This document shows positions 37,667 to 64,000 of a DNA stretch of 64,000 bases, in pieces. The stretch lies in NCBI GenBank assembly GCA_027490195.1, contig JAIXYN010000085.1, forward strand, positions 1 through 64,000. Direction: 5' to 3'. The notes under the pieces were generated by a model that saw nothing but the letters and a program-made list of their open reading frames with translations, did not search any database and was not told the DNA's origin. The position numbers and the translations under genes are program-made. How positions within the stretch are numbered: position 1 is the first letter of the stretch; the number at the start of each line of letters is the position of its first letter. Source of the DNA: Verrucomicrobiaceae bacterium (GTDB lineage: Bacteria; Verrucomicrobiota; Verrucomicrobiia; Verrucomicrobiales; Verrucomicrobiaceae).

Positions 37667-40036
37667 CTACTTCTTTCCCTTCGCCGCTGCTGCCGTGAAC
37701 CAGTCGCCGCCACCACCGCCGCCAAAGGGATTGCCCATGCCGCCGCCAGAGCTGCGCTGGCCACCGCCGCCGCTGGAAAAGCTGCGCTGACCACCGGCAG
37801 GGCCACCCGCCGGGCGAGGCCCTGCTGCTCCCTGCTTCTTCTCAAAGTCAGGCTTGGATTTCATGCTGAGGGCGATGCGCTTGCGCGGGATGTCCACTTC
37901 CGTCACCGTCACCTGCACCCGCTGCGCGACCTTCACGATCTCAGCCGCATCCTTCACAAAGGTGTCGCTGAGCTGGCTCACGTGCACGAGGCCGTCCTGA
38001 TGCACGCCGATGTCCACAAAGGCACCAAAGGCCGTCACGTTCGTCACAATGCCCGGCAGTTTCATGCCCACGGTGAGGTCCTTCATGTCGTTCACGCCGT
38101 CGGCGAAACTGAAGACTTCAAACTGCTTACGCGGATCGCGCCCTGGCTTCGCGAGTTCGTTCATGATGTCCTGCAGCGTCGGCAGGCCCACGTCTTCGCT
38201 CACATACTTTTTCAGGTCGATCTTCTGGCGCAGGTCAGCGCGCTGCATGAGATCCGGCACGGTGCAGCCAATCTCTGCCGCCATCTTTTCGACGAGCGGA
38301 TAGCGCTCAGGATGCACCGCGCTGGCATCCAGCGGATGTGTGGCATCACGAATGCGCAGGAAGCCCGCCGCCTGTTCGAAGGCCTTGTCGCCCAGCCTTG
38401 GCACCTTCATGAGATCCTTGCGGCTCTTGAATGGGCCGTTCTCATTGCGGAAGGCAACGATGTTCAACGCGTGGGTAGTGTTCAGGCCGGACACGTAGCT
38501 GAGCAACTGCTTGCTGGCCGTGTTCAACTCCACACCCACGCCGTTAACCGCGCTGATCACCACCTGATCAAGACTGGTCTTGAGCTGGTTCTGATCCACA
38601 TCGTGCTGATACTGACCGACACCAATGGACTTCGGATCGAGCTTCACCAGCTCTGCCAGCGGGTCCATGAGACGACGAGCGATGGAAACCGAGCCACGCA
38701 CCGTGAGATCCTGATCCGGGAACTCCTCACGTGCGGCTTCGCTGGCGCTGTAAATCGACGCACCGCTCTCATTCACCATGATCACCGGAATCGAAGCCGG
38801 CACACCGATCTTCTTCACAAACATCTCCGTCTCACGGCCTGCAGTACCATTGCCAATCGCGATGGCCTGAATCTTGTAACGATCCACCAGATTGAGCACC
38901 AGGTTTTTCGCATGCAGCAGACCACTGCCCTCGCCGAGAAGATAGATCACATCGTTGTAGAGAAGCTGCCCCTGCGCATCCAGCACCACCACCTTGCAGC
39001 CCGTGCGGAAGCCGGGGTCGATGCCCAGCACACGTTTTTGTCCCAGCGGGGCAGCCAGCAGCAGTTCACGCAGGTTGTCAGCAAACACACGCACAGCCTC
39101 CGTGTCCGCCTTCTTCTTCGATTCAAGACGCGCCTCAGTCTCCATACTGGAACTCATCAAGCGCTTGTAGCTGTCCGCACAGGCCAGCTTCATCTGGTCA
39201 GAGCAGAGATTGCCGCCTTTGACGAAGAGGTTCTCGAGCATCTTAACTGCCGTGTCTTCCGCCGGCTGGATGCGCATGAGCAGAAACCCTTCTTTTTCCC
39301 CACGCCGGATGGCCAGCATGCGGTGTGAAGGGATGGCCTTGAGCGGCTCGCTCCAGTCGAAGTAATCGCGGAACTTCTGCGCCTCTTCCTCCTTCTCTTT
39401 GCCGAACATGACCTTGGAAACAACCGTGGACTGCTCCGCAAAAAATTTGCGCAAGGTCGCACGAGCCTCCGCATGATCGCTGATGCGCTCAGCAATGATG
39501 TCGCGTGCGCCACTCAGTGCATCCGCAGCATCTTTGACACGCAGCTCTTCGTTTTCGTGATCTGGATTCACAAATTTCGCCACCTCGCCCGTCAGGTCCA
39601 CGCCATGCGTCATCAGATTGGCCTCGATGAAATCCGCCAGCGGCTCCAGACCTTTTTCTTTCGCAATCGTGGCGCGTGTGCGGCGCTTCGGACGGAACGG
39701 CGCAAAGATGTCCTCCAGCGCATTCATCGTCTCCGCCTTCTCGATCTTCCCGCGCAAAGCATCTGTCATCAGCTTGCGTTCTTCGAGCGATTTCACGATG
39801 GCCGTGCGGCGGTCATCCAGCGCAACAAGCTGCGTCATGCGCTCCTGAATGTTAAGGATTTGCACTTCATCCAGAGACCCCGTGGCCTCCTTGCGGTAAC
39901 GGGCGATGAACGGCACTGTGGCCCCATCGGCAAAGAGTTTGGCCGTCGCGCCCACCTGGATGGCCTTCAGGCCCAGCTCCTTGGCGACACGCTCGACATG
40001 GGTGACATTGATATTGAGTTCGTTAGCAGCAGACAT
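37667..40036 (-). CDS. tex: Tex-like transcription accessory protein with Gly-rich tail
   Basis: 789 aa RNA/DNA-binding protein related to Spt6. Order of domains: Tex-N helical region (FIARYRKEATGSLDEVQI), YqgF-like RNase H fold about residues 320-450 (VLGIDPGFRTGCKVVVLD), helix-hairpin-helix segments (GVGVELNTAS, RSRKDLMKVPRLG type), and a C-terminal S1 domain about 650-720 (LPGIVTNVTAFGAFVDIGVH, DGLVHVSQLS). An added 60-residue Gly/Arg/Ser-rich tail ends in KGKK and resembles RGG-type RNA-binding tails. Start at MSAANELNIN. Confidence 0.95.
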   Translation of the reverse strand: MSAANELNINVTHVERVAKELGLKAIQVGATAKLFADGATVPFIARYRKEATGSLDEVQILNIQERMTQLVALDDRRTAIVKSLEERKLMTDALRGKIEKAETMNALEDIFAPFRPKRRTRATIAKEKGLEPLADFIEANLMTHGVDLTGEVAKFVNPDHENEELRVKDAADALSGARDIIAERISDHAEARATLRKFFAEQSTVVSKVMFGKEKEEEAQKFRDYFDWSEPLKAIPSHRMLAIRRGEKEGFLLMRIQPAEDTAVKMLENLFVKGGNLCSDQMKLACADSYKRLMSSSMETEARLESKKKADTEAVRVFADNLRELLLAAPLGQKRVLGIDPGFRTGCKVVVLDAQGQLLYNDVIYLLGEGSGLLHAKNLVLNLVDRYKIQAIAIGNGTAGRETEMFVKKIGVPASIPVIMVNESGASIYSASEAAREEFPDQDLTVRGSVSIARRLMDPLAELVKLDPKSIGVGQYQHDVDQNQLKTSLDQVVISAVNGVGVELNTASKQLLSYVSGLNTTHALNIVAFRNENGPFKSRKDLMKVPRLGDKAFEQAAGFLRIRDATHPLDASAVHPERYPLVEKMAAEIGCTVPDLMQRADLRQKIDLKKYVSEDVGLPTLQDIMNELAKPGRDPRKQFEVFSFADGVNDMKDLTVGMKLPGIVTNVTAFGAFVDIGVHQDGLVHVSQLSDTFVKDAAEIVKVAQRVQVTVTEVDIPRKRIALSMKSKPDFEKKQGAAGPRPAGGPAGGQRSFSSGGGGQRSSGGGMGNPFGGGGGGDWFTAAAAKGKK

Positions 40037-40203
40037 GGTTGGAAAATAGAAAAGTTAGCGCTGAAAATTCGGTTGGGATGGGTGGAGTTAGCGAGACGAT
40101 CACACGCAGCAACCATTCAAGATCACATGTGAAAAACTTTTGTCGGAGCCATGGCTTGACATCGTGTTGCGAAATTTCCATGGCTGCTTCGTATGGAAGC
40201 TAC

Positions 40204-41424
40204 ATGAAGAAATTTTTCGCGGCTTTTCTGGTTTCAACTTGTGCGTTCGCCGCAGAGGACTGGCCGCGCTGGCGTGGGCCAGATTCGGATGGAGGCTGGA
40301 ATCCGCAGGACATCCCTGCGGACTTTGCCAGGAAAGAGCCCGAACGACTTTGGAAAAAGGAGATCAACGCCGGATTCGGCGGTGTCACCGTCAGCAGTGG
40401 ACGGGTGTATGTGATGGACCGGCTCAAGGTGCCAAAAGAGGTCGAACGCATCCTGTGCTTTGACGCGGAGAGCGGCAGAAATGTCTGGGAGCACGCCTGG
40501 GAGGTCAGCTACGGCAGCATGGATTACGGAACCGGGCCGCGTTCATCGGTGAACATCACCGCTGGCAAGGCCTACGTTTTGGGTGCGACGGGAGTGGCCT
40601 CATGTCTCGATGCCGTGACGGGTCAGGTGCTGTGGCAGGTGGACACGGTCAAAACCTTCGGGGCAAAGATTCCCACCTGGGGTTTTGCCGCGTCGCCGGT
40701 GGTCGATGGGGATCGAGTCTTGCTGCATGTCGGAGCGAATGCAGGCTCAGTCATCGCCTTGGACAAAAGCTCCGGCCAAGAACTCTGGCGCGGCGGCCCT
40801 GATCCAGCGGGTTACTGCACACCGGAAATCATCTCGCACGCGGGCACACGTCAGCTCATCGCCTGGGGGCCGGACCATGTGCAGAGCCTCAATCCAGACA
40901 GCGGTCGGGTGAACTGGCTCTTTCCATACAAAATCACCTATGGCGTCAGCATCGCTCAACCGCTTTACCATGACGGCATTCTCCTCGTCTCCGGCTACTG
41001 GCACGGTGCCAAGGCGCTTCAGCTCGGCAAGAGTCCGGGGCTGCTGTGGGAAAACAAAACCGAAATCTGCGGCCTCATGTCGGCCCCCTTGTTCAAAGAC
41101 GGCGTCGTTTACATGCTCGACAAGACTCGCGGCCTCCAGGCCTTCGAACTCAAGACCGGCAAAATTCTCTGGAGCGATGACAACTCGCTGACGCCGAAGG
41201 ACAGGAATCCGCAGATGAGCCTCGTATGGATGCAGGAATCAAACAACCTCGCCGCATTGCTCAACGCCAGCGGTGAACTCGTCTATGTCACACTGAAGCC
41301 CGAAAAGCGCGTGGAACTGGCCCGATGGCAAATCACCGGCAAAACCTGGGCGCATCCGGCTTTCGCGGGCAACAGGGTATTTGCTCGCAGCGATAAAGAA
41401 TTGTCAGCCTGGCGGCTTTGGTAG
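40204..41424 (+). CDS. Secreted PQQ-like beta-propeller repeat protein
   Basis: 406 aa with a signal peptide ending AFA-AED. It opens WPRWRGPDSDG, the hallmark of this verrucomicrobial/planctomycete group. WD-like propeller blades of PQQ type follow (CFDAESGRNVWEHAW, CLDAVTGQVLWQVDT, ALDKSSGQELWRGG, FELKTGKILWSDD). It is not a bona fide quinoprotein dehydrogenase; no cofactor residues are clear. It probably folds as a periplasmic propeller scaffold or sensor. The ceramidase-like gene begins 5 bp after its stop, so they are one operon. Paralogue at 50298. Confidence 0.85.
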   Translation: MKKFFAAFLVSTCAFAAEDWPRWRGPDSDGGWNPQDIPADFARKEPERLWKKEINAGFGGVTVSSGRVYVMDRLKVPKEVERILCFDAESGRNVWEHAWEVSYGSMDYGTGPRSSVNITAGKAYVLGATGVASCLDAVTGQVLWQVDTVKTFGAKIPTWGFAASPVVDGDRVLLHVGANAGSVIALDKSSGQELWRGGPDPAGYCTPEIISHAGTRQLIAWGPDHVQSLNPDSGRVNWLFPYKITYGVSIAQPLYHDGILLVSGYWHGAKALQLGKSPGLLWENKTEICGLMSAPLFKDGVVYMLDKTRGLQAFELKTGKILWSDDNSLTPKDRNPQMSLVWMQESNNLAALLNASGELVYVTLKPEKRVELARWQITGKTWAHPAFAGNRVFARSDKELSAWRLW

Positions 41425-58070: not shown

Positions 58071-58422
58071 CTTCCATTTTCCCTAGAATGCGGCAACGCT
58101 GGTCGTGGTTTCCCAATAAATCACGCTCATGCCATACGCAATCCCATGCCTGCCGCCACACTCGCCACTTAGGTCATCAGCAACGTCTGCATCATGATCT
58201 TCTCCACCAGTTTAACCAAGGCAGCCGCATCGAAAACGAAATCATTGAGGAGAATTCCAATTGCCGTTAAACCGTCCCATATGCCACCAACGGCGTCCGG
58301 CTACTTGGCAAATCCCTTACCGCACTGAAACGCAAAGGCTTTCACTTCGATCTTAATAAAGGACTGTGGATGCGAGAAACGCATGTAGGTATTCGTCCGT
58401 TTTTCCCGATTACATTTCGTTC
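58071..58422. other. Intergenic region, no supported gene
   Basis: 352 bases between the TPR gene and the histidine kinase gene. A short frame (58088-58270) ends RIENEIIEENSNCR and has a mildly protein-like look, so this might be the remnant of a gene, but nothing is conserved enough to call. No repeat or terminator was identified. Confidence 0.5.
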
Positions 58423-60063
58423 ATGAGTTCCGAGCCTACTGTTGAGTTTTCTGACAAGTCTGTACATGACGACCTGCTGCGTCTCCGCGCGGAGCTGAAC
58501 TTGTACAAGCAGGTCATCGCTGGCAATCGTGATGGCCTTTGGCATCGTGATCTAAACACAGGAATACTCTGGGTTTCCGACCGCTGGTGGGAAATGCTTG
58601 GCTATCCGCCCGAGGATGCTCCAAAGCATCAGGATGACTTCCGTCGTTTGGTCCATCCTGAAGACATCCCCAAGATGGAAATAGCAGTGCGAAGCCACCT
58701 TTCGGCTGAAGCTGACGAATATCGGTGTCAATACCGGCTCAAGGACGGCAACGGCGACTGGCGCACTGTTTTATCCCGAGGTAGGGCGCTGCGTGAGAAA
58801 ACGAGTGGGAACTTCACCCACATCGTCGGTAGCCATTTTGATGTCACCGAGAATGCAGCCAAAGAGCAGGAGGAAAAGCGGCTTGGCCAAGTCTATGATC
58901 GTGTCTTTCATAGCATTCCGCATTTGATCGTGGTCAAAAACGAACTGGACCAGTTCATCTATGTGAACAAAGCGCTTGCCGAATTTTGGGGCGAGAAAGA
59001 TCCCAAGAAGCTAGTCGGAAAATGTGACGCTGACTACAATCCAGACAAAGAGGAGGTGTCAGCTTTTTTGAAGGCTGACGCTGAGGTTCGACGAACGCGC
59101 CAGCCAAAGGTTATTTCAATCGAAAAAAACACGGATTATCAAAAGAAGAAGCATTGGCTCAACACCATTAAGGTCCCTCTTATCAATGACGACGGAACAG
59201 TTTTTGTTGTCATCGTTGCGACCTTTATCGATGATGTGATGGAGATGGCTGAGAAGGTTAAACAACAGGAGGAAGTGCCGAAGCTCGCACGTAATATCGC
59301 CCATAAGTTAGGGACGCGCATTTTCACACTTCGCAACTTAGTCGCTATAACTCATCACGGTGCGGATGAGGATGATCTGAACGCTGCGTTTGATGACATC
59401 ACCCAATTCGCAGAGGACTTTCTGAAATTGACGAGTGCGGACCGCATCGTTCCCCAGCCGTTCAATCTCCTGAGCCTCATTCATGGTGTTCTCAAATCCT
59501 TCGCAGAAAAGGCAAAGATTACGCTTAATGGAGCGGTTGTCAGATCCGGTGGGGATGCCGTCAGCAAGTTTGGGGACCCGCTTCCTTATGAGATGACGGG
59601 AGATTCAACCAAACTCTTCGACGTGTTTGCTGAACTGGCTAAAAATTCGCTCGCGTGGAAAAAAGAGGACACCCATCGAATCAGTGTTTCTGTTCAACCG
59701 CTGCATCTCACACAACCCAGCATGGCCAATCTTCCCGGCACAGGTCGTTATCAAATCATTTTCGAGGACAACGGGCCAGGAGTTCCGCAAAATCAAAAAC
59801 AAAAAATTTTTGAGCCTTTCATTTCAGGACGTGCCGCCAGCCTGGTTCCGGAGAATGGTGACGCCATCACAGCGGCCAAGAATGATCATAGCGGTTCTGG
59901 CACTGGGCTAGGACTGGCCATCGCGGACGAGGTCATGAAATCGCACGGCGGATACATCATGGAAAACGGCACTCCTGGTGCAGGTGCTCGGTTTGTGATT
60001 ACGTTAATGAAAAGACCTCCTGAACAAAATGTGATCCGACATTCAAGCACCACACATCCCTGA
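58423..60063 (+). CDS. PAS-containing sensor histidine kinase
   Basis: 546 aa, cytoplasmic (no membrane segment). A first PAS domain at about residues 30-142 (DGLWHRDLNTGILWVSDRWW, FRRLVHPEDIP, YRCQYRLKDGNGDWR) and a second at 155-270 (FHSIPHLIVVKNELDQFIYV). The H-box is ARNIAHKLGTRIFTLR with His294 and an unusual Lys after His. The ATPase core has N-box FAELAKNSLAW, G1 EDNGPGVP and G2 GSGTGLGLAIADEV. Stop and start with the next gene overlap by TGATG (60061-60065). A start GTG at 58366 would add 19 residues. The signal is unknown. Confidence 0.9.
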   Translation: MSSEPTVEFSDKSVHDDLLRLRAELNLYKQVIAGNRDGLWHRDLNTGILWVSDRWWEMLGYPPEDAPKHQDDFRRLVHPEDIPKMEIAVRSHLSAEADEYRCQYRLKDGNGDWRTVLSRGRALREKTSGNFTHIVGSHFDVTENAAKEQEEKRLGQVYDRVFHSIPHLIVVKNELDQFIYVNKALAEFWGEKDPKKLVGKCDADYNPDKEEVSAFLKADAEVRRTRQPKVISIEKNTDYQKKKHWLNTIKVPLINDDGTVFVVIVATFIDDVMEMAEKVKQQEEVPKLARNIAHKLGTRIFTLRNLVAITHHGADEDDLNAAFDDITQFAEDFLKLTSADRIVPQPFNLLSLIHGVLKSFAEKAKITLNGAVVRSGGDAVSKFGDPLPYEMTGDSTKLFDVFAELAKNSLAWKKEDTHRISVSVQPLHLTQPSMANLPGTGRYQIIFEDNGPGVPQNQKQKIFEPFISGRAASLVPENGDAITAAKNDHSGSGTGLGLAIADEVMKSHGGYIMENGTPGAGARFVITLMKRPPEQNVIRHSSTTHP

Positions 60064-61208
60064 TGAAAGAACCACCCTCAATCCTAATTGTGGACGATCA
60101 TGCACCAACTGCTGACTCGTTGGTGAAAAGGCTCAAGAAGGCCCATCCAGCCTGGAATTTCCAGCCTGCCTACACATTGTCTTCGGCTCTGGAATATTTG
60201 AAAGCAGCTCCTTATGATGCAGTCATCACCGATTACCGGCTGGACGAGCATGATCCGTTAAAAACTGGGCTGGTTGTCATCGACCATGCAAGAGCCAAGG
60301 ACAAGCTTTGCGTTTGCATCCTAATGACGGCGTATCCAGAAGACTTTGACCGCTACAAGGAAGCCTTTAACAAAGGAGTGTCAGAATGCATTGTCAAAAG
60401 CCAGCGCGGCCTTGATATGGGAAAGGAGATTGAGTTCAAACTGCAGCTAGAGCTTCAGAGAAGATGGGAACACGAAGAAGCTTACACGTATGCACGCCAC
60501 ATCGATATGAAATTGCGTGCGGCCTGGGGCGCGACAAGCAATCGCAGCAAGCTTACTCAACGATTGGTAGCAATCATGTTCACGGATGTCCGTGGGTTTT
60601 CCGAAGCCACCCACGAACTGCGCACCCACCCTCACGTCATTATCAACTTTCTCGAAAAACTCTATTCGGTAATCATTGAGGAAGTCCATGCTCAAAATGG
60701 CATGGTGGACAAGTTCATCGGGGACGGGTCGTTATGCCTTTTCGGAGCACTAGGTTACAATGATGATGGCAACCACGGCAAACAAGCGGCGCAAGCCGCA
60801 CTGGCGATTCAACATCGCTGGGATGCTCTCGAATCTGATCTAAAGAAACAGACTTTGGCGGCAGTTGGGGTAAATCTCCCACCGATAAGCTTGGGCGTGG
60901 GAATTCACATCGAGGAAACGATGGTAGGAATCGTTCAAACTGACATAGGCAGGGACCAGTTCACTGCCCTGGGTTCAGGTGTCAATCTGGCGAAAAAGTT
61001 GGAGTCCTTTGCTGGCAAACTCGTCGCAGTTGACGGAAGCGGAAAGAAAGAGAAAACCTACCGCTTTGGAAACATCTTGATCACTGGGACGGTCCAACAT
61101 CAAGTCGAAGAAGACTTCGATTTGAAAAAAGAAGAGCACGAACTCAAGCTACTCAAAAACAAGACCCCCTATCCCATTTGGCATGTTAGGCGCGCCAAGA
61201 ATAGCTGA
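60063..61208 (+). CDS. Response regulator with class III nucleotide cyclase output
   Basis: 381 aa. Receiver domain: acidic pair Asp11-Asp12, phosphoacceptor Asp57 (VITDYRL), Thr in MTAYPED and Lys112. From residue about 165 a class III cyclase domain: FTDVRGFSE (Asp175) and DKFIGDG (Asp221) are the two metal aspartates. The substrate and transition-state region reads TALGSGVNLAKKLES: Asn308 is kept, but the usual Arg four residues later is Lys312 and the Asp of GD-x-VN is Ser. Thus it makes cAMP (or cGMP), or acts as a weak or inactive cyclase. It is coupled to the kinase gene, its probable phosphodonor. Confidence 0.9.
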   Translation: MKEPPSILIVDDHAPTADSLVKRLKKAHPAWNFQPAYTLSSALEYLKAAPYDAVITDYRLDEHDPLKTGLVVIDHARAKDKLCVCILMTAYPEDFDRYKEAFNKGVSECIVKSQRGLDMGKEIEFKLQLELQRRWEHEEAYTYARHIDMKLRAAWGATSNRSKLTQRLVAIMFTDVRGFSEATHELRTHPHVIINFLEKLYSVIIEEVHAQNGMVDKFIGDGSLCLFGALGYNDDGNHGKQAAQAALAIQHRWDALESDLKKQTLAAVGVNLPPISLGVGIHIEETMVGIVQTDIGRDQFTALGSGVNLAKKLESFAGKLVAVDGSGKKEKTYRFGNILITGTVQHQVEEDFDLKKEEHELKLLKNKTPYPIWHVRRAKNS

Positions 61209-61223
61209 TCTTAAACTTACACG

Positions 61224-61973
61224 TCAGTCTTTAATCGCGACGAGTTGCGGTCCAAGCAAGGCACGGCTCATGGAGCTGTAGGGAGCTTCTGGCAGGCAGG
61301 CTTCATGCATCAGAGTAATGAGAGCCTTTCTTGTCACTGAAGGAGTGTTGGCTCGTGACGCTTCATTGAGAATGGCTTTCAGGCGCTTCAGATGAGCGCG
61401 GCGTTCATCCACCAGCGCCTCGTCCTCATCCAGACGAAAGGTGCTGATCGTGTGGGCGGCGCGGGGGCATTCATTGACCGGCACAGGAATTGACTCCTGC
61501 CATCCGATATTTGTTTCAGGATCATCCACAAAGGCATCGAGAAGAAGCGGACGCTCGGCTGCGTGGCTCGGTTTTGCGGGGGTGGCGCGTCTGTGAGGAT
61601 TTGCGAGGGGGAAGAGGTTTCCTTTATGGCCTGCATCATTGCACATGGCGCAACTGACGCAGAGATTGCTCCACTCATAGGCCAGCCAGAAATAGCCCGG
61701 CACCTTGAGGCGGTCACTGCGCTTTTGTTTCCAACCTGCCTTGGGGCGGCAGTGCTCAACCTGACCGTAATCGCGGACGAGACGCGTTTCGCAGTAAGCG
61801 CATTTGCGGTGCTGGGCCTGGAGCAGTGATTGTTTGACCTTTTTGGAGCCATAGATCCGTGCATTGAAGGTTAGCTCTTTTTTCTGCCGCCAGTCCTCCC
61901 ATAGCTGCGCAGTAGCGGGTGGAGCGGATTTCAAAAGTACAGCCGGAGCTGGCGGGCGCTTTAACTTGATCAT
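61224..61973 (-). CDS. ptuB: HNH endonuclease, PtuB-like (Septu system)
   Basis: 249 aa. HNH-type zinc nuclease core: KCAYCETRLV, VEHCRPKAGW (the catalytic His pair region), LCVSCAMCNDAGHKGNLFPL. The C-terminal part is helical. Proteins of this type (TIGR02646-like) are the PtuB nucleases of Septu anti-phage systems and partner an ATPase encoded directly upstream, as here with a 24-bp gap. PtuB probably cuts DNA or RNA once PtuA senses infection. Start chosen at MIKLKRPP. Confidence 0.83.
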   Translation of the reverse strand: MIKLKRPPAPAVLLKSAPPATAQLWEDWRQKKELTFNARIYGSKKVKQSLLQAQHRKCAYCETRLVRDYGQVEHCRPKAGWKQKRSDRLKVPGYFWLAYEWSNLCVSCAMCNDAGHKGNLFPLANPHRRATPAKPSHAAERPLLLDAFVDDPETNIGWQESIPVPVNECPRAAHTISTFRLDEDEALVDERRAHLKRLKAILNEASRANTPSVTRKALITLMHEACLPEAPYSSMSRALLGPQLVAIKD

Positions 61974-61997
61974 AGGGGCAAAAGTGTGGCTCCAGAA

Positions 61998-63497
61998 TCA
62001 AAGTGCGAGTTTAGCTGTCGCGTGATGCCCGTTCATGGCGGCTCGGAGCCGCTGGTCCAGCCACTCCTCCGCCGACTGGCTGGCAGGTGGTGCCTCTAGG
62101 TCAAGCCTGCTGAGCAGTTCCTTTAGCACGCGGGACTGCTTCGGGCTGCGCTTTTTCAACCGTGAGAGGTCGCGAACGCGTTCAAACAATGCCTGATAGG
62201 AAGCGCTGCGAGTAGCGAGAAGGCCGTATAGCCCACTAGTGGCTAGCTGGTCCAGACGCCAGCCTTTCACATAGGGCGGGTCATTCACCAGAGTCACGCT
62301 CTGGCGTCCGCTCTCATCGGGCTCCTCCCGGAGCAAGGCGATGTTTGCCCGACCATCCGCCGCCAGAAGGATGACCGGGCTGTGGGCGGTGACGATGAAT
62401 TGAACATTTGGAAACGCCTCAGAAAGCCACTCAATGATGGTTGACTGCCAGCGGATGTGCAGATGCAAGTCGAACTCATCGATGAGGACCACGGCCGGCC
62501 CTGTCTCCGGTTTCGACAAATCGGGATACCATTGGTTCAGGCGGCGCACGAGATCCACTATCCACGCGGCGGTAGCACGATGCCCAAGGCTAAGGCCGGA
62601 AAAAGGCACCGGGCCATAGGGGGTCTCGAAGAAGACGCTCATGACCGGGTTGGGGTATCCGTAGGGCCGGATCACGACGCCGGCAACCCCTGGAAGAATG
62701 CTGCACAGGCACCTGATTGCTCGCTCCAGCGCGCGCGCGGCCTTACGCGCCCCTCGGTCCCCGGCGCTGGCCTGATGATGAAGGCTGAGCAGCCATTGCT
62801 CAGGACTGATGAGCGGTAGGTCATCGTAGAAAATGGTGCTGGTTGGAGAATCCGCATCGAGACCACGCGATTCCGGGGTAAGATACTGGGCGTTGGGGGC
62901 GGCCACATGCCGCCCAGCACCGTAGGCAATGATGCGAAGCTCATCGACCAAAGAAGAATCGCCACTTCCTGAACTCCTTAACTGAGGCCTGAAGGCCCCA
63001 ACCTCCTTGTGGTCGAAACGAACACAAAAACGCCATTCACCAGCATGAGGCCTGTGCAAACCTTGGGGCACTACGGCAGCTTGACGGGCCTCATTCAAAG
63101 TTGAGACTGGCTCGGTGAGTTCCAGGGAACTAGCGATGTCTTTGCGCTTCTCTCTTGGGAGGGAAAGGTTCTCGAAGTGCCAGTTGAGGAACTGCCTGTC
63201 CGAAAAATAGGGGACGATTGCCGCAGACGATTGCTTCCTGCCTGAACGTCCCATGTCCTGCACGGGTTTCATGCCAGCTATGTATTGCAGAAGGGAGGTT
63301 TTACCCGTGCCGTTTTCTCCTAGAATCACCGTCCATTGAGCCAGATTTCCGTCCGGGGTGCATAAATCGAGCTTCTGCTGAGAACGAAACGTGCGGACAT
63401 TCGTTAACGTCACGCTGCGGATGTAGCGGCACTTCGGTGTGTCGGCACTGCTTTTGGCAGGTATATTTTGGCCGTTGGCGGCTGGCTTGCGTGGCAT
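61998..63497 (-). CDS. ptuA: AAA/SMC-like ATPase, PtuA-like (Septu system)
   Basis: 499 aa. ATPase of the AAA15/21 ABC-like type: Walker A GENGTGKTSLL near residue 62, an ABC-signature-like SLGHRATAAWIV near 325, Walker B VVLIDEFDLHLH near 360 and the switch His TAHSPVI near 395. The opening VTLTNVRTFRSQQKLDL is characteristic. The C-terminal 100 residues are helical. With PtuB it makes the Septu pair; ATP binding is thought to restrain or trigger the nuclease. An unusual feature is a third gene (63559) 61 bp upstream in the same direction. Confidence 0.83.
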   Translation of the reverse strand: MPRKPAANGQNIPAKSSADTPKCRYIRSVTLTNVRTFRSQQKLDLCTPDGNLAQWTVILGENGTGKTSLLQYIAGMKPVQDMGRSGRKQSSAAIVPYFSDRQFLNWHFENLSLPREKRKDIASSLELTEPVSTLNEARQAAVVPQGLHRPHAGEWRFCVRFDHKEVGAFRPQLRSSGSGDSSLVDELRIIAYGAGRHVAAPNAQYLTPESRGLDADSPTSTIFYDDLPLISPEQWLLSLHHQASAGDRGARKAARALERAIRCLCSILPGVAGVVIRPYGYPNPVMSVFFETPYGPVPFSGLSLGHRATAAWIVDLVRRLNQWYPDLSKPETGPAVVLIDEFDLHLHIRWQSTIIEWLSEAFPNVQFIVTAHSPVILLAADGRANIALLREEPDESGRQSVTLVNDPPYVKGWRLDQLATSGLYGLLATRSASYQALFERVRDLSRLKKRSPKQSRVLKELLSRLDLEAPPASQSAEEWLDQRLRAAMNGHHATAKLAL

Positions 63498-63558
63498 GTG
63501 GACTGATGTACCGCTCCCATGGAGGAATCAAGCCCTGTCCTTTGTCTGCTGGTAGCCC

Positions 63559-64000
63559 CTATCTCGGCAAAAAGTAGCCTTTGATGCACTTCGGATTGCG
63601 AACGCAAATCTGGATGTGGTCCCGGTCCCGCAGCCCTGCGCCGGGATACAGCTCGGAGCCTTCGATGAAGAAGCCGCGCACGGTGTCGAAGGGCGGGAGT
63701 CCTTGCTCCTGCCGCCACGCATGGAGAGTTTCAAAGACCATGCAGTCCAAATAGCGAGCACGAAACCCAATGCCCCGGTTTCTTTCCTCGTTCGAGCCCG
63801 AGAGTTGGCAAATTTGCCGATACCGCTGGTAAGCATCACGCACGATCTGTAGAGCCTCAGCTTCGACCAAATCAAGGCACTTGCCCAAGTCCACCACGAC
63901 ACCGATCACCGCAGGGGTCTTGATGCGCCCCTCTTTGGCAGCTTCAAGCGCCCACTGCCAGCCCCGCTCAAGGCTGTATTCCCAGATGTATTGCCCATTC
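63559..64000 (-). CDS. Conserved protein, possibly ADP-ribosyltransferase-like, C-terminal part only
   Basis: The frame runs off the right edge of the window: its complement continues as NGQYIWEYSLERGWQWAL, EAAKEGRIKTPAVIGVVVDLG and then KCLDLVEAEALQIV. An apparent ATG at 63909 is internal. Further motifs are NRGIGFRARYLDCMVFETLH, PPFDTVRGFFIEGSELYPG, HIQICVRNPKCIKGYFLP. I recall this pattern from a family whose N-terminus has YHGT and YDWLGxGIYFWE, suggestive of an ADP-ribosyltransferase-type fold; that part is outside the window. It precedes ptuA by 61 bp on the same strand, so it could be a third gene of the defence operon. Confidence 0.7.
   Translation of the reverse strand, partial: NGQYIWEYSLERGWQWALEAAKEGRIKTPAVIGVVVDLGKCLDLVEAEALQIVRDAYQRYRQICQLSGSNEERNRGIGFRARYLDCMVFETLHAWRQEQGLPPFDTVRGFFIEGSELYPGAGLRDRDHIQICVRNPKCIKGYFLPR

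What the first reader, a model, noticed from the sequence alone, without database searches (positions are those of the whole stretch)
61224..64000. Septu-like defence operon with an extra, possibly ART-like, upstream gene
Seen: an AAA/SMC-type ATPase (intact Walker A, B and switch His) followed after 24 bp by an HNH nuclease, the standard PtuA-PtuB order, and a third conserved gene 61 bp upstream on the same strand. Established: PtuA/PtuB is the Septu anti-phage system; extra genes occur in variants. Inference: the third gene encodes a protein I associate with an ADP-ribosyltransferase-like N-terminus (YHGT, YDWLG), which would make a three-component system with modification and cleavage activities. 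The key N-terminus is outside the window.
Basis: partly seen in the sequence, partly recalled or inferred. Interest (0 to 1): 0.8.

Follow-up and report, generated by a model that had tools for sequence, protein, structure and literature searches.

The report
CmdT-like ADP-ribosyltransferase module beside Septu
The extra gene next to this ordinary Septu phage-defence pair is one half of a separate, widespread and apparently unnamed two-gene module, probably an enzyme toxin of the ADP-ribosyltransferase kind with a small partner, and not a third part of Septu.

Summary
Window 61224-61973(-) is a PtuB nuclease and 61998-63497(-) a PtuA ATPase (PADLOC 2.9e-67, 2.6e-102). The third gene is 185 aa once read beyond the window. 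The ADP-ribosyltransferase (ART) guess is right: a homologue models at pLDDT 95 and matches exotoxin A, PARP and ART toxins of toxin-antitoxin pairs. A three-component Septu is not supported. A 53-aa gene lies 5 bp upstream of the ART, and such a partner sits just upstream of the ART in 111 of 123 loci, downstream in some others. A same-genus genome has the pair at the same site without Septu; the window genome has a 5,485-bp insert there with a histidine kinase, a response-regulator cyclase, ptuB and ptuA. The ART family is distantly related to CmdT, the mRNA ART of the CmdTAC defence system (PD-T4-9_A in 52 of 52 members; profile E 3.3e-9). No SecB-like chaperone gene was found in 152 loci. 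Best reading: a chaperone-less CmdT-like toxin-partner pair, with Septu as a later neighbour. No activity was tested.

The parts
61224..61973 (-). ptuB, HNH nuclease of Septu
   Evidence: PADLOC PDLC00339 2.9e-67; NCBIfam NF041761 2e-17, below its cut-off
61998..63497 (-). ptuA, AAA/ABC-type ATPase of Septu
   Evidence: PADLOC PDLC00304 2.6e-102; Pfam AAA_21 2.1e-18; Walker A, Walker B and switch His present
63559..64000 (-). C-terminal 146 aa of the CmdT-like ART; the gene continues to contig position 64116, 185 aa in all
   Evidence: family alignments A1 and A2; PADLOC PD-T4-9_A 0.001 for this protein, 52 of 52 members at up to 0.1, best 4.1e-9
64000..64000 (-). Window edge. Beyond it, contig 64122-64283(-), is the 53-aa partner gene (P0002), 5 bp upstream of the ART start; further up, at about contig 64319-64342, a strong hairpin after glyA
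   Evidence: partner profile E 1.2e-7; hairpin -23.9 kcal/mol, z -5.1
58073..63557 (.). 5,485-bp segment absent from the same site in same-genus genome G012: histidine kinase 58366-60063(+), response-regulator cyclase 60063-61208(+), ptuB, ptuA
   Evidence: BLAST homology to L155 ends at L002:3073 and resumes at L002:8559, with 43 bp between these points in G012

Best explanation
Two separate units lie side by side. (1) A standard two-gene Septu pair, ptuA-ptuB. (2) A two-gene partner-ART module. The ART is a single-domain enzyme of the H-Y-[EDQ] class, distantly related to CmdT. Likely catalytic residues are His11, Tyr43 and Gln169, with Glu152 as an alternative third residue. I propose that the small partner, a helical hairpin with a short tail, binds the ART and keeps it folded and inactive. 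When the partner is lost, for instance by proteolysis during phage infection or by loss of the element, the freed ART uses NAD+ to ADP-ribosylate a macromolecule. By its relation to CmdT the likeliest target is RNA, so that translation and growth stop. Shown here: fold, homology, conserved residues, gene pairing, flipping gene order, and presence of the pair at the same site without Septu. Inferred: toxicity, neutralisation, target, trigger, and that Septu came later, on an insert placed at the ART stop codon.
For: Fold: AlphaFold2 model of homologue L033 (55% identical to the window protein), pLDDT 95, pTM 0.89. Foldseek: exotoxin A catalytic fragment 1.1e-4, PARP1 1.9e-3. VIA-align Z 6.9-7.9: a cyanophage A4 pre-ejectosome protein first, then NatT, MbcT, VPA0770, PARPs, ParT. 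Pfam PARP in 7 of 51 members (best 5.7e-6) and Exotox-A_cataly in 2 of 51 (best 3.5e-6), at up to 0.1. CmdT relation: PD-T4-9_A in 52 of 52 members at up to 0.1, best 4.1e-9; PD-T4-9 was renamed CmdTAC. hhalign against 13 CmdT-like sequences: 96%, E 3.3e-9, 164 columns. Shared pattern: H-x-C, WL-x-x-G-x-Y-x-W, Q-x-C. Partner: 111 of 123 loci upstream, 3 hits elsewhere among 8,443 ORFs. Cross-tests 36 of 43 and 70 of 80. New loci 21 of 24, at least 3 of which repeat seed sequences. P0002, not a seed, E 1.2e-7. Independence from Septu: G012 site; window PtuA found at up to 1e-20 in 1 of 56 related genomes, the window's own, while the ART family is in 18 of 56. Selection: ART dN 0.26, dS 1.50 between G000 and G012.
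Against: P0001 alone scores weakly against PD-T4-9_A (0.001; 0.02 in the genome search), and at 1e-6 that model finds nothing in 387 genomes of the phylum, so the link rests on the family profile. The invariant Glu152 (FxEG) has no clear counterpart in CmdT, so chemistry or target may differ. No homology of the upstream-type partners to CmdA was detected (E 0.68; 0.5). Downstream-type partners against CmdA gave only E 0.011, score 18.4, against a maximum of 11.5 in 30 column shuffles. The partners look basic rather than acidic (by eye, not computed). Partner genes are under weaker constraint (dN 0.56, dS 1.61). Foldseek TM-scores are modest (about 0.4) and Z is below 8. No hairpin separates the ART from ptuA, so read-through transcription is possible. 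Toxicity is untested.
Confidence: 0.75

Rival explanations
1. Three-component Septu variant: the ART is a working subunit or modifier of PtuAB in this genome.
For: Same strand, 61-bp gap, no hairpin between ART and ptuA.
Against: The ART has its own conserved partner. G012 keeps the pair at the same site without Septu. ptuA-like sequence near 1 of 151 other loci and not adjacent; in 0 of 24 further loci; no PtuA or PtuB model match among 99 downstream neighbours.
Confidence: 0.06
2. The partner-ART module is a toxin-antitoxin pair that acts on a protein or on NAD+ itself (like NatT or MbcT), not on RNA as CmdT does.
For: ART toxins of NatRT, MbcTA and ParST are among the top fold matches. Invariant Glu152 is without clear counterpart in CmdT. 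Many ARTs modify proteins (recalled).
Against: The sequence relation is to CmdT; the Pfam scan of 51 members showed no RES-type match.
Confidence: 0.3
3. The small partner is not an antitoxin but an adaptor, folding factor or substrate, and the pair is a regulatory or housekeeping modification system.
For: CmdA is needed to fold CmdT as well as to neutralise it (PMC11618068 section 6). No DNA-binding domain seen in the partner.
Against: Patchy presence (21 of 313 genomes of the phylum; 18 of 56 relatives), several copies in some genomes (4 matches each in G010 and G037), presence in 60 plasmid records and on 43 viral contigs are what toxin-antitoxin or defence genes show.
Confidence: 0.15

Closest known systems
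CmdTAC (PD-T4-9), E. coli ECOR22
   Same: Toxin of the same ART lineage: HxC, WLxxGxYxW and QxC pattern, exotoxin-A-like fold; small partner gene abutting the toxin gene; partner predicted as two helices.
   Different: No SecB-like CmdC in 152 loci, whereas 11 of 11 CmdT viral loci have one. Partner short: P0002 is 53 aa and ends LIRP, whereas the 12 CmdA read here are 77-117 aa or so and end in AA. Partner mostly upstream of the toxin, not downstream. Extra invariant FxEG.
Septu (PtuA-PtuB)
   Same: 61224-63497 is a normal ptuA-ptuB pair.
   Different: The ART module is not part of it. The target of this PtuAB is unknown; published PtuAB differ (tRNA-Tyr for retron-Eco7 and Septu EcB88, DNA reported for another; passages).
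ART toxin-antitoxin pairs NatRT, MbcTA, ParST, VPA0770/0769
   Same: ART-fold toxin beside a small antitoxin gene (entry titles).
   Different: Fold resemblance only (Z 6.9-7.8); no sequence relation seen. Their antitoxins are mostly Xre/MbcA/ParS-type (recalled); the partner P0002 gave no Pfam match.
phrog_14664
   Same: Same family as the third gene (7.7e-15).
   Different: A name for phage proteins of unknown function only.

Membership tests
Septu | PtuA ATPase with intact nucleotide-binding motifs | tested here: met
Septu | PtuB HNH nuclease directly downstream of ptuA | tested here: met
   24 bp gap
Septu | ART gene as a recurring third component | tested here: not met
ADP-ribosyltransferase fold | ART core fold | tested here: met
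   model of homologue L033, not of the window protein itself
ADP-ribosyltransferase, H-Y-[EDQ] class | Conserved His, Tyr and third acidic or Gln residue | tested here: met
   H11, Y43, E152 and Q169 invariant in 52 of 52; which of E152 and Q169 is the third residue is inferred
CmdTAC | CmdT homologue | tested here: met
   distant, and weak for the window protein taken alone
CmdTAC | CmdA antitoxin: helical hairpin plus long chaperone-addiction tail ending in LAA | tested here: not met
   A family partner (L082) models as a helical hairpin without a long tail; homology to CmdA not shown
CmdTAC | SecB-like chaperone CmdC next to the toxin | tested here: not met
   0 hits in 8,372 ORFs of 152 loci, 0 of 24 further loci; 29 of the 152 have only about 1.5 kb on each side, the others up to 5 kb
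Type II toxin-antitoxin pair | Conserved two-gene pair, small gene abutting the toxin gene | tested here: met
Type II toxin-antitoxin pair | Toxicity and neutralisation | not testable with these tools
   needs expression in a laboratory host

The most novel reading that the evidence does not exclude
A large, undescribed family of chaperone-less CmdT-like modules (partner-ART) exists across many phyla, plasmids and prophages, more common than CmdTAC where both were sought (43 against 11 viral loci; 21 of 313 against 0 of 387 genomes of this phylum, with different thresholds). It acts by ADP-ribosylating RNA to stop translation, with a new kind of antitoxin whose gene sits upstream or downstream of the toxin.
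Probability: 0.45. Interest if true: 0.72.

Novelty: new variant of a known kind. Interest (0 to 1): 0.52.

Why it matters
If right, the mRNA-modifying ART branch founded by CmdT extends to a much larger set of simple two-gene modules that the libraries used here do not name: no convincing Pfam or NCBIfam match for the window's pair, one PHROG of unknown function, 'hypothetical protein' on the 30 plasmid records listed. That would make nucleic-acid ADP-ribosylation a common bacterial weapon and give a simple, chaperone-free pair on which to study how CmdT-like toxins are held in check. It also corrects a tempting but wrong guilt-by-association call: gene order alone suggested a three-part Septu.

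Tried and rejected
Three-gene Septu: rejected on the site comparison, neighbour survey and partner pairing.

A recurring third gene of the ART module: 99 of 117 downstream and 79 of 119 upstream neighbours were scanned. I left the rest out when I gave the lists; they are mostly short ORFs, but the 18 downstream ones include the long L107 and L113. No family recurs in more than 3 of 99 downstream members (PADLOC at 1e-8, full list; Pfam at 1e-5, 25 of 104 families shown, ordered by number of members). For upstream neighbours 65 PADLOC families matched and only 25 were shown, so PtuA there is judged from tblastn with one PtuA and one PtuB, which can miss divergent ones.

CmdA homology of the partner: not established. 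In one search hhalign printed merge errors for two comparisons but returned scores.

Papers: no paper in the held library joins Septu, PtuA and ADP-ribosyltransferase. CmdTAC or CmdT in this sense was seen in 5 of the 20 papers listed, of 375, and no passage that I read describes the two-gene family. PMC11618068: abstract, sections 6, 12 and 34, part 1 of section 41, and passages; PMC9519451, PMC11833690, PMC13096335, PMC11555353, PMC9503650 and PMC7955679: passages only; others: listing only. The library lacks most subscription journals.

Sequence search of solved structures with the family profile found nothing convincing: best 0.065, aminotransferases; an exotoxin at 1.2.

Response-regulator cyclase as a Pycsar cyclase: PADLOC PycC 5.8e-16 covers the cyclase domain only; I did not look for an effector partner.
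Full report
What was checked. NCBIfam's retron-type PtuA and PtuB models match below their cut-offs. Motifs are intact.

The third gene. The window belongs to a 383-kb contig, so the missing part could be read. The gene is 185 aa (P0001), contig 63559-64116(-), 61 bp upstream of ptuA. Taken alone it has no convincing Pfam or NCBIfam match (exopolyphosphatase 0.0012 far below cut-off, SPRY 0.13, Exotox-A_cataly 0.23). PHROGs gives phrog_14664, function unknown, 7.7e-15.

A second, smaller gene. 5 bp upstream of the ART start lies a 53-aa ORF (P0002). A perfect 10-bp hairpin with a GAAA loop stands between glyA and this ORF (-23.9 kcal/mol, z -5.1), so the pair probably starts its own unit; the simple terminator scan did not list it, as it lacks a T run. 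No comparable structure separates the ART from ptuA (z +1.3).

The family. P0001 has relatives in 18 of 56 related genomes at up to 0.001, and the family profile finds it in 21 of 313 genomes sampled from the phylum at up to 1e-12. 43 loci came from viral contigs and 60 plasmid records have it, the 30 listed ones annotated 'hypothetical protein'; no match in the phage record collection. In 52 aligned members H11, D36, W37, L38, G39, G41, Y43, W45, R51, N113, D124, E152, H167 and Q169 are among the invariant residues. A1 holds 24 of the 29 matches; L018, L019, L020, L026 and L031 (partial, broken or near-identical) were left out. Some loci of the genome scan are the same places as loci (for example L085 and L021), so loci are not all independent.

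Fold. The only Foldseek matches at up to 0.001 are three exotoxin A entries (best 1.1e-4); PARP1 follows at 1.9e-3. The second aligner lists a cyanophage A4 pre-ejectosome protein first (7.9), then NatT, MbcT, VPA0770, PARPs, ParT and diphtheria toxin at Z 6.7-7.8, a range its notes call middling. The weight therefore lies on the consistency of the list and on sequence: Pfam PARP in 7 of 51 and exotoxin A catalytic domain in 2 of 51 members.

CmdT. Scanning full-length members against PADLOC gave PD-T4-9_A in 52 of 52 at up to 0.1, best 4.1e-9, P0001 itself 0.001. PD-T4-9 is the former name of CmdTAC (PMC9519451, passages), whose toxin CmdT is an mRNA ART with an exotoxin-A-like predicted fold and a catalytic Tyr41 (PMC11618068). 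In genome searches the same model scores the window's own two copies only at 0.02 and 0.04 and finds nothing at 1e-6 in 387 genomes of the phylum, so typical CmdT is rare there and the kinship is distant. To test it I fetched two clear PD-T4-9_A loci, found in 2 of 369 genomes of another class; L169 and L170 read as CmdT, CmdA and a SecB-like gene. 11 more came from viral contigs. Profile comparison of the family with these 13 gave E 3.3e-9 over 164 columns, with H, Y and Q-x-C in register. In CmdT the pattern is H-x-C, QWLT-x-G-x-Y-x-W, R-x-Q-x-C; in this family HGC, DWLG-x-G-x-Y-x-W, HIQIC. Gln169 is therefore my preferred third catalytic residue; Glu152, invariant here and without a clear counterpart in CmdT, is the alternative.

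The partner. A profile made from 83 of 123 loci hit a small ORF just upstream of the ART in 111 of 123 loci and hit 3 ORFs elsewhere among 8,443; two of those 3 lie just downstream of an ART without an upstream partner (L142, L146), and L145 joins them with a second profile. As the seeds came from the same loci, I cross-tested: seeds from genome loci found it in 36 of 43 viral loci (2 hits elsewhere), seeds from viral loci in 70 of 80 genome loci (1 elsewhere). P0002, not a seed, scored 1.2e-7. In 24 new loci (21 from the phylum search, 3 plasmids), 21 had a partner next to the ART, 15 upstream and 6 downstream; at least three of the 24 (L187, L188, L192) repeat seed sequences; the misses are L201, L202 and L203, the last with an ART cut at its N-terminus near a contig end. 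A subgroup of ARTs, including the second copy in the window's own genome (L025), carries the partner downstream. The two partner types are related (hhalign 9.5e-9). A family partner (L082) models as a two-helix hairpin with a short tail, pLDDT 92. CmdA is described as a pair of helices with a long disordered tail, but sequence homology is not shown. 11 of 11 viral CmdT loci have the SecB-like gene; none of the 152 family loci has one in the stretch held.

Relation to Septu. In G012, same genus, glyA, partner (38% identical), ART (67%) and the TPR gene stand in the same order, and only 43 bp lie between the points where homology to the window breaks and resumes; the window genome has 5,485 bp there. 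That segment holds a histidine kinase, a response-regulator cyclase, ptuB and ptuA; the kinase-cyclase part has lower G+C (0.49-0.52 against mostly 0.56-0.61 around it). Insertion in the window lineage or loss in G012 cannot be told apart from two genomes alone. But window PtuA and the cyclase are each found in 1 of 56 relatives at up to 1e-20, the window's own, and the cyclase in 1 of 387 genomes of the phylum at up to 1e-25, which favours gain. Across 151 other family loci only L129 carries ptuA-like and ptuB-like genes, about 3.5 kb upstream of the ART with other genes between.

Selection. Between G000 and G012 the ART has dN 0.257 and dS 1.496; the partner 0.56 and 1.61 over 53 codons, a weaker constraint. 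dS values this high are rough.

Host. G010 is given as same genus; its contig C158 and record NZ_JACSRD010000051.1 (Prosthecobacter sp. VE4) have the same length, 54,996 bp, and carry matching loci (L021, L085), so the genus is probably Prosthecobacter (inference).

Mechanism. Shown: fold, residues, pairing, kinship to CmdT. Inferred: the ART is toxic, the partner restrains it, the target is RNA. Without a chaperone sensor the trigger must differ from that of CmdTAC, where capsid protein draws off CmdC (abstract); partner turnover is the simplest proposal. Septu next door is an ordinary PtuAB pair whose target is not predictable, since published PtuAB cut tRNA-Tyr or are reported to act on DNA.

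Verdict. Right about Septu and about the ART; wrong, as far as these tests reach, about one three-part system. The interest lies in the widespread partner-ART family.

Noticed in passing
window 58366-61208 (+): A PAS histidine kinase overlapping a response regulator fused to a class III nucleotide cyclase, on the same insert as ptuAB and convergent with it. The cyclase was found in 1 of 387 genomes of the phylum at up to 1e-25, the window's own; plasmid matches are below 60% identity and mostly partial.
   Followed up: partly
L157 / L025 (contig C15 about 39895-40419, same genome): A second copy of the ART family in the window's genome, with the partner gene downstream instead of upstream, next to a mutS-like gene (recognised by eye).
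   Followed up: partly
L129 163-2189 and 4983-5582: A viral contig with a ptuA-ptuB-like pair about 3.5 kb upstream of an ART with its small partner, with other genes between.
   Followed up: partly
L034 404-670 and its main partner gene: Two partner-like small genes upstream of one ART.
   Followed up: no
search controls: The named control genome Methanocaldococcus jannaschii gives a PD-T4-9_A match in every run, down to a threshold of 1e-8.
   Followed up: no
L002 9378-11144 (-), contig 64377-66143: One open frame that reads as a RpiB-like N-terminus followed by serine hydroxymethyltransferase (by eye), directly upstream of the module.
   Followed up: no
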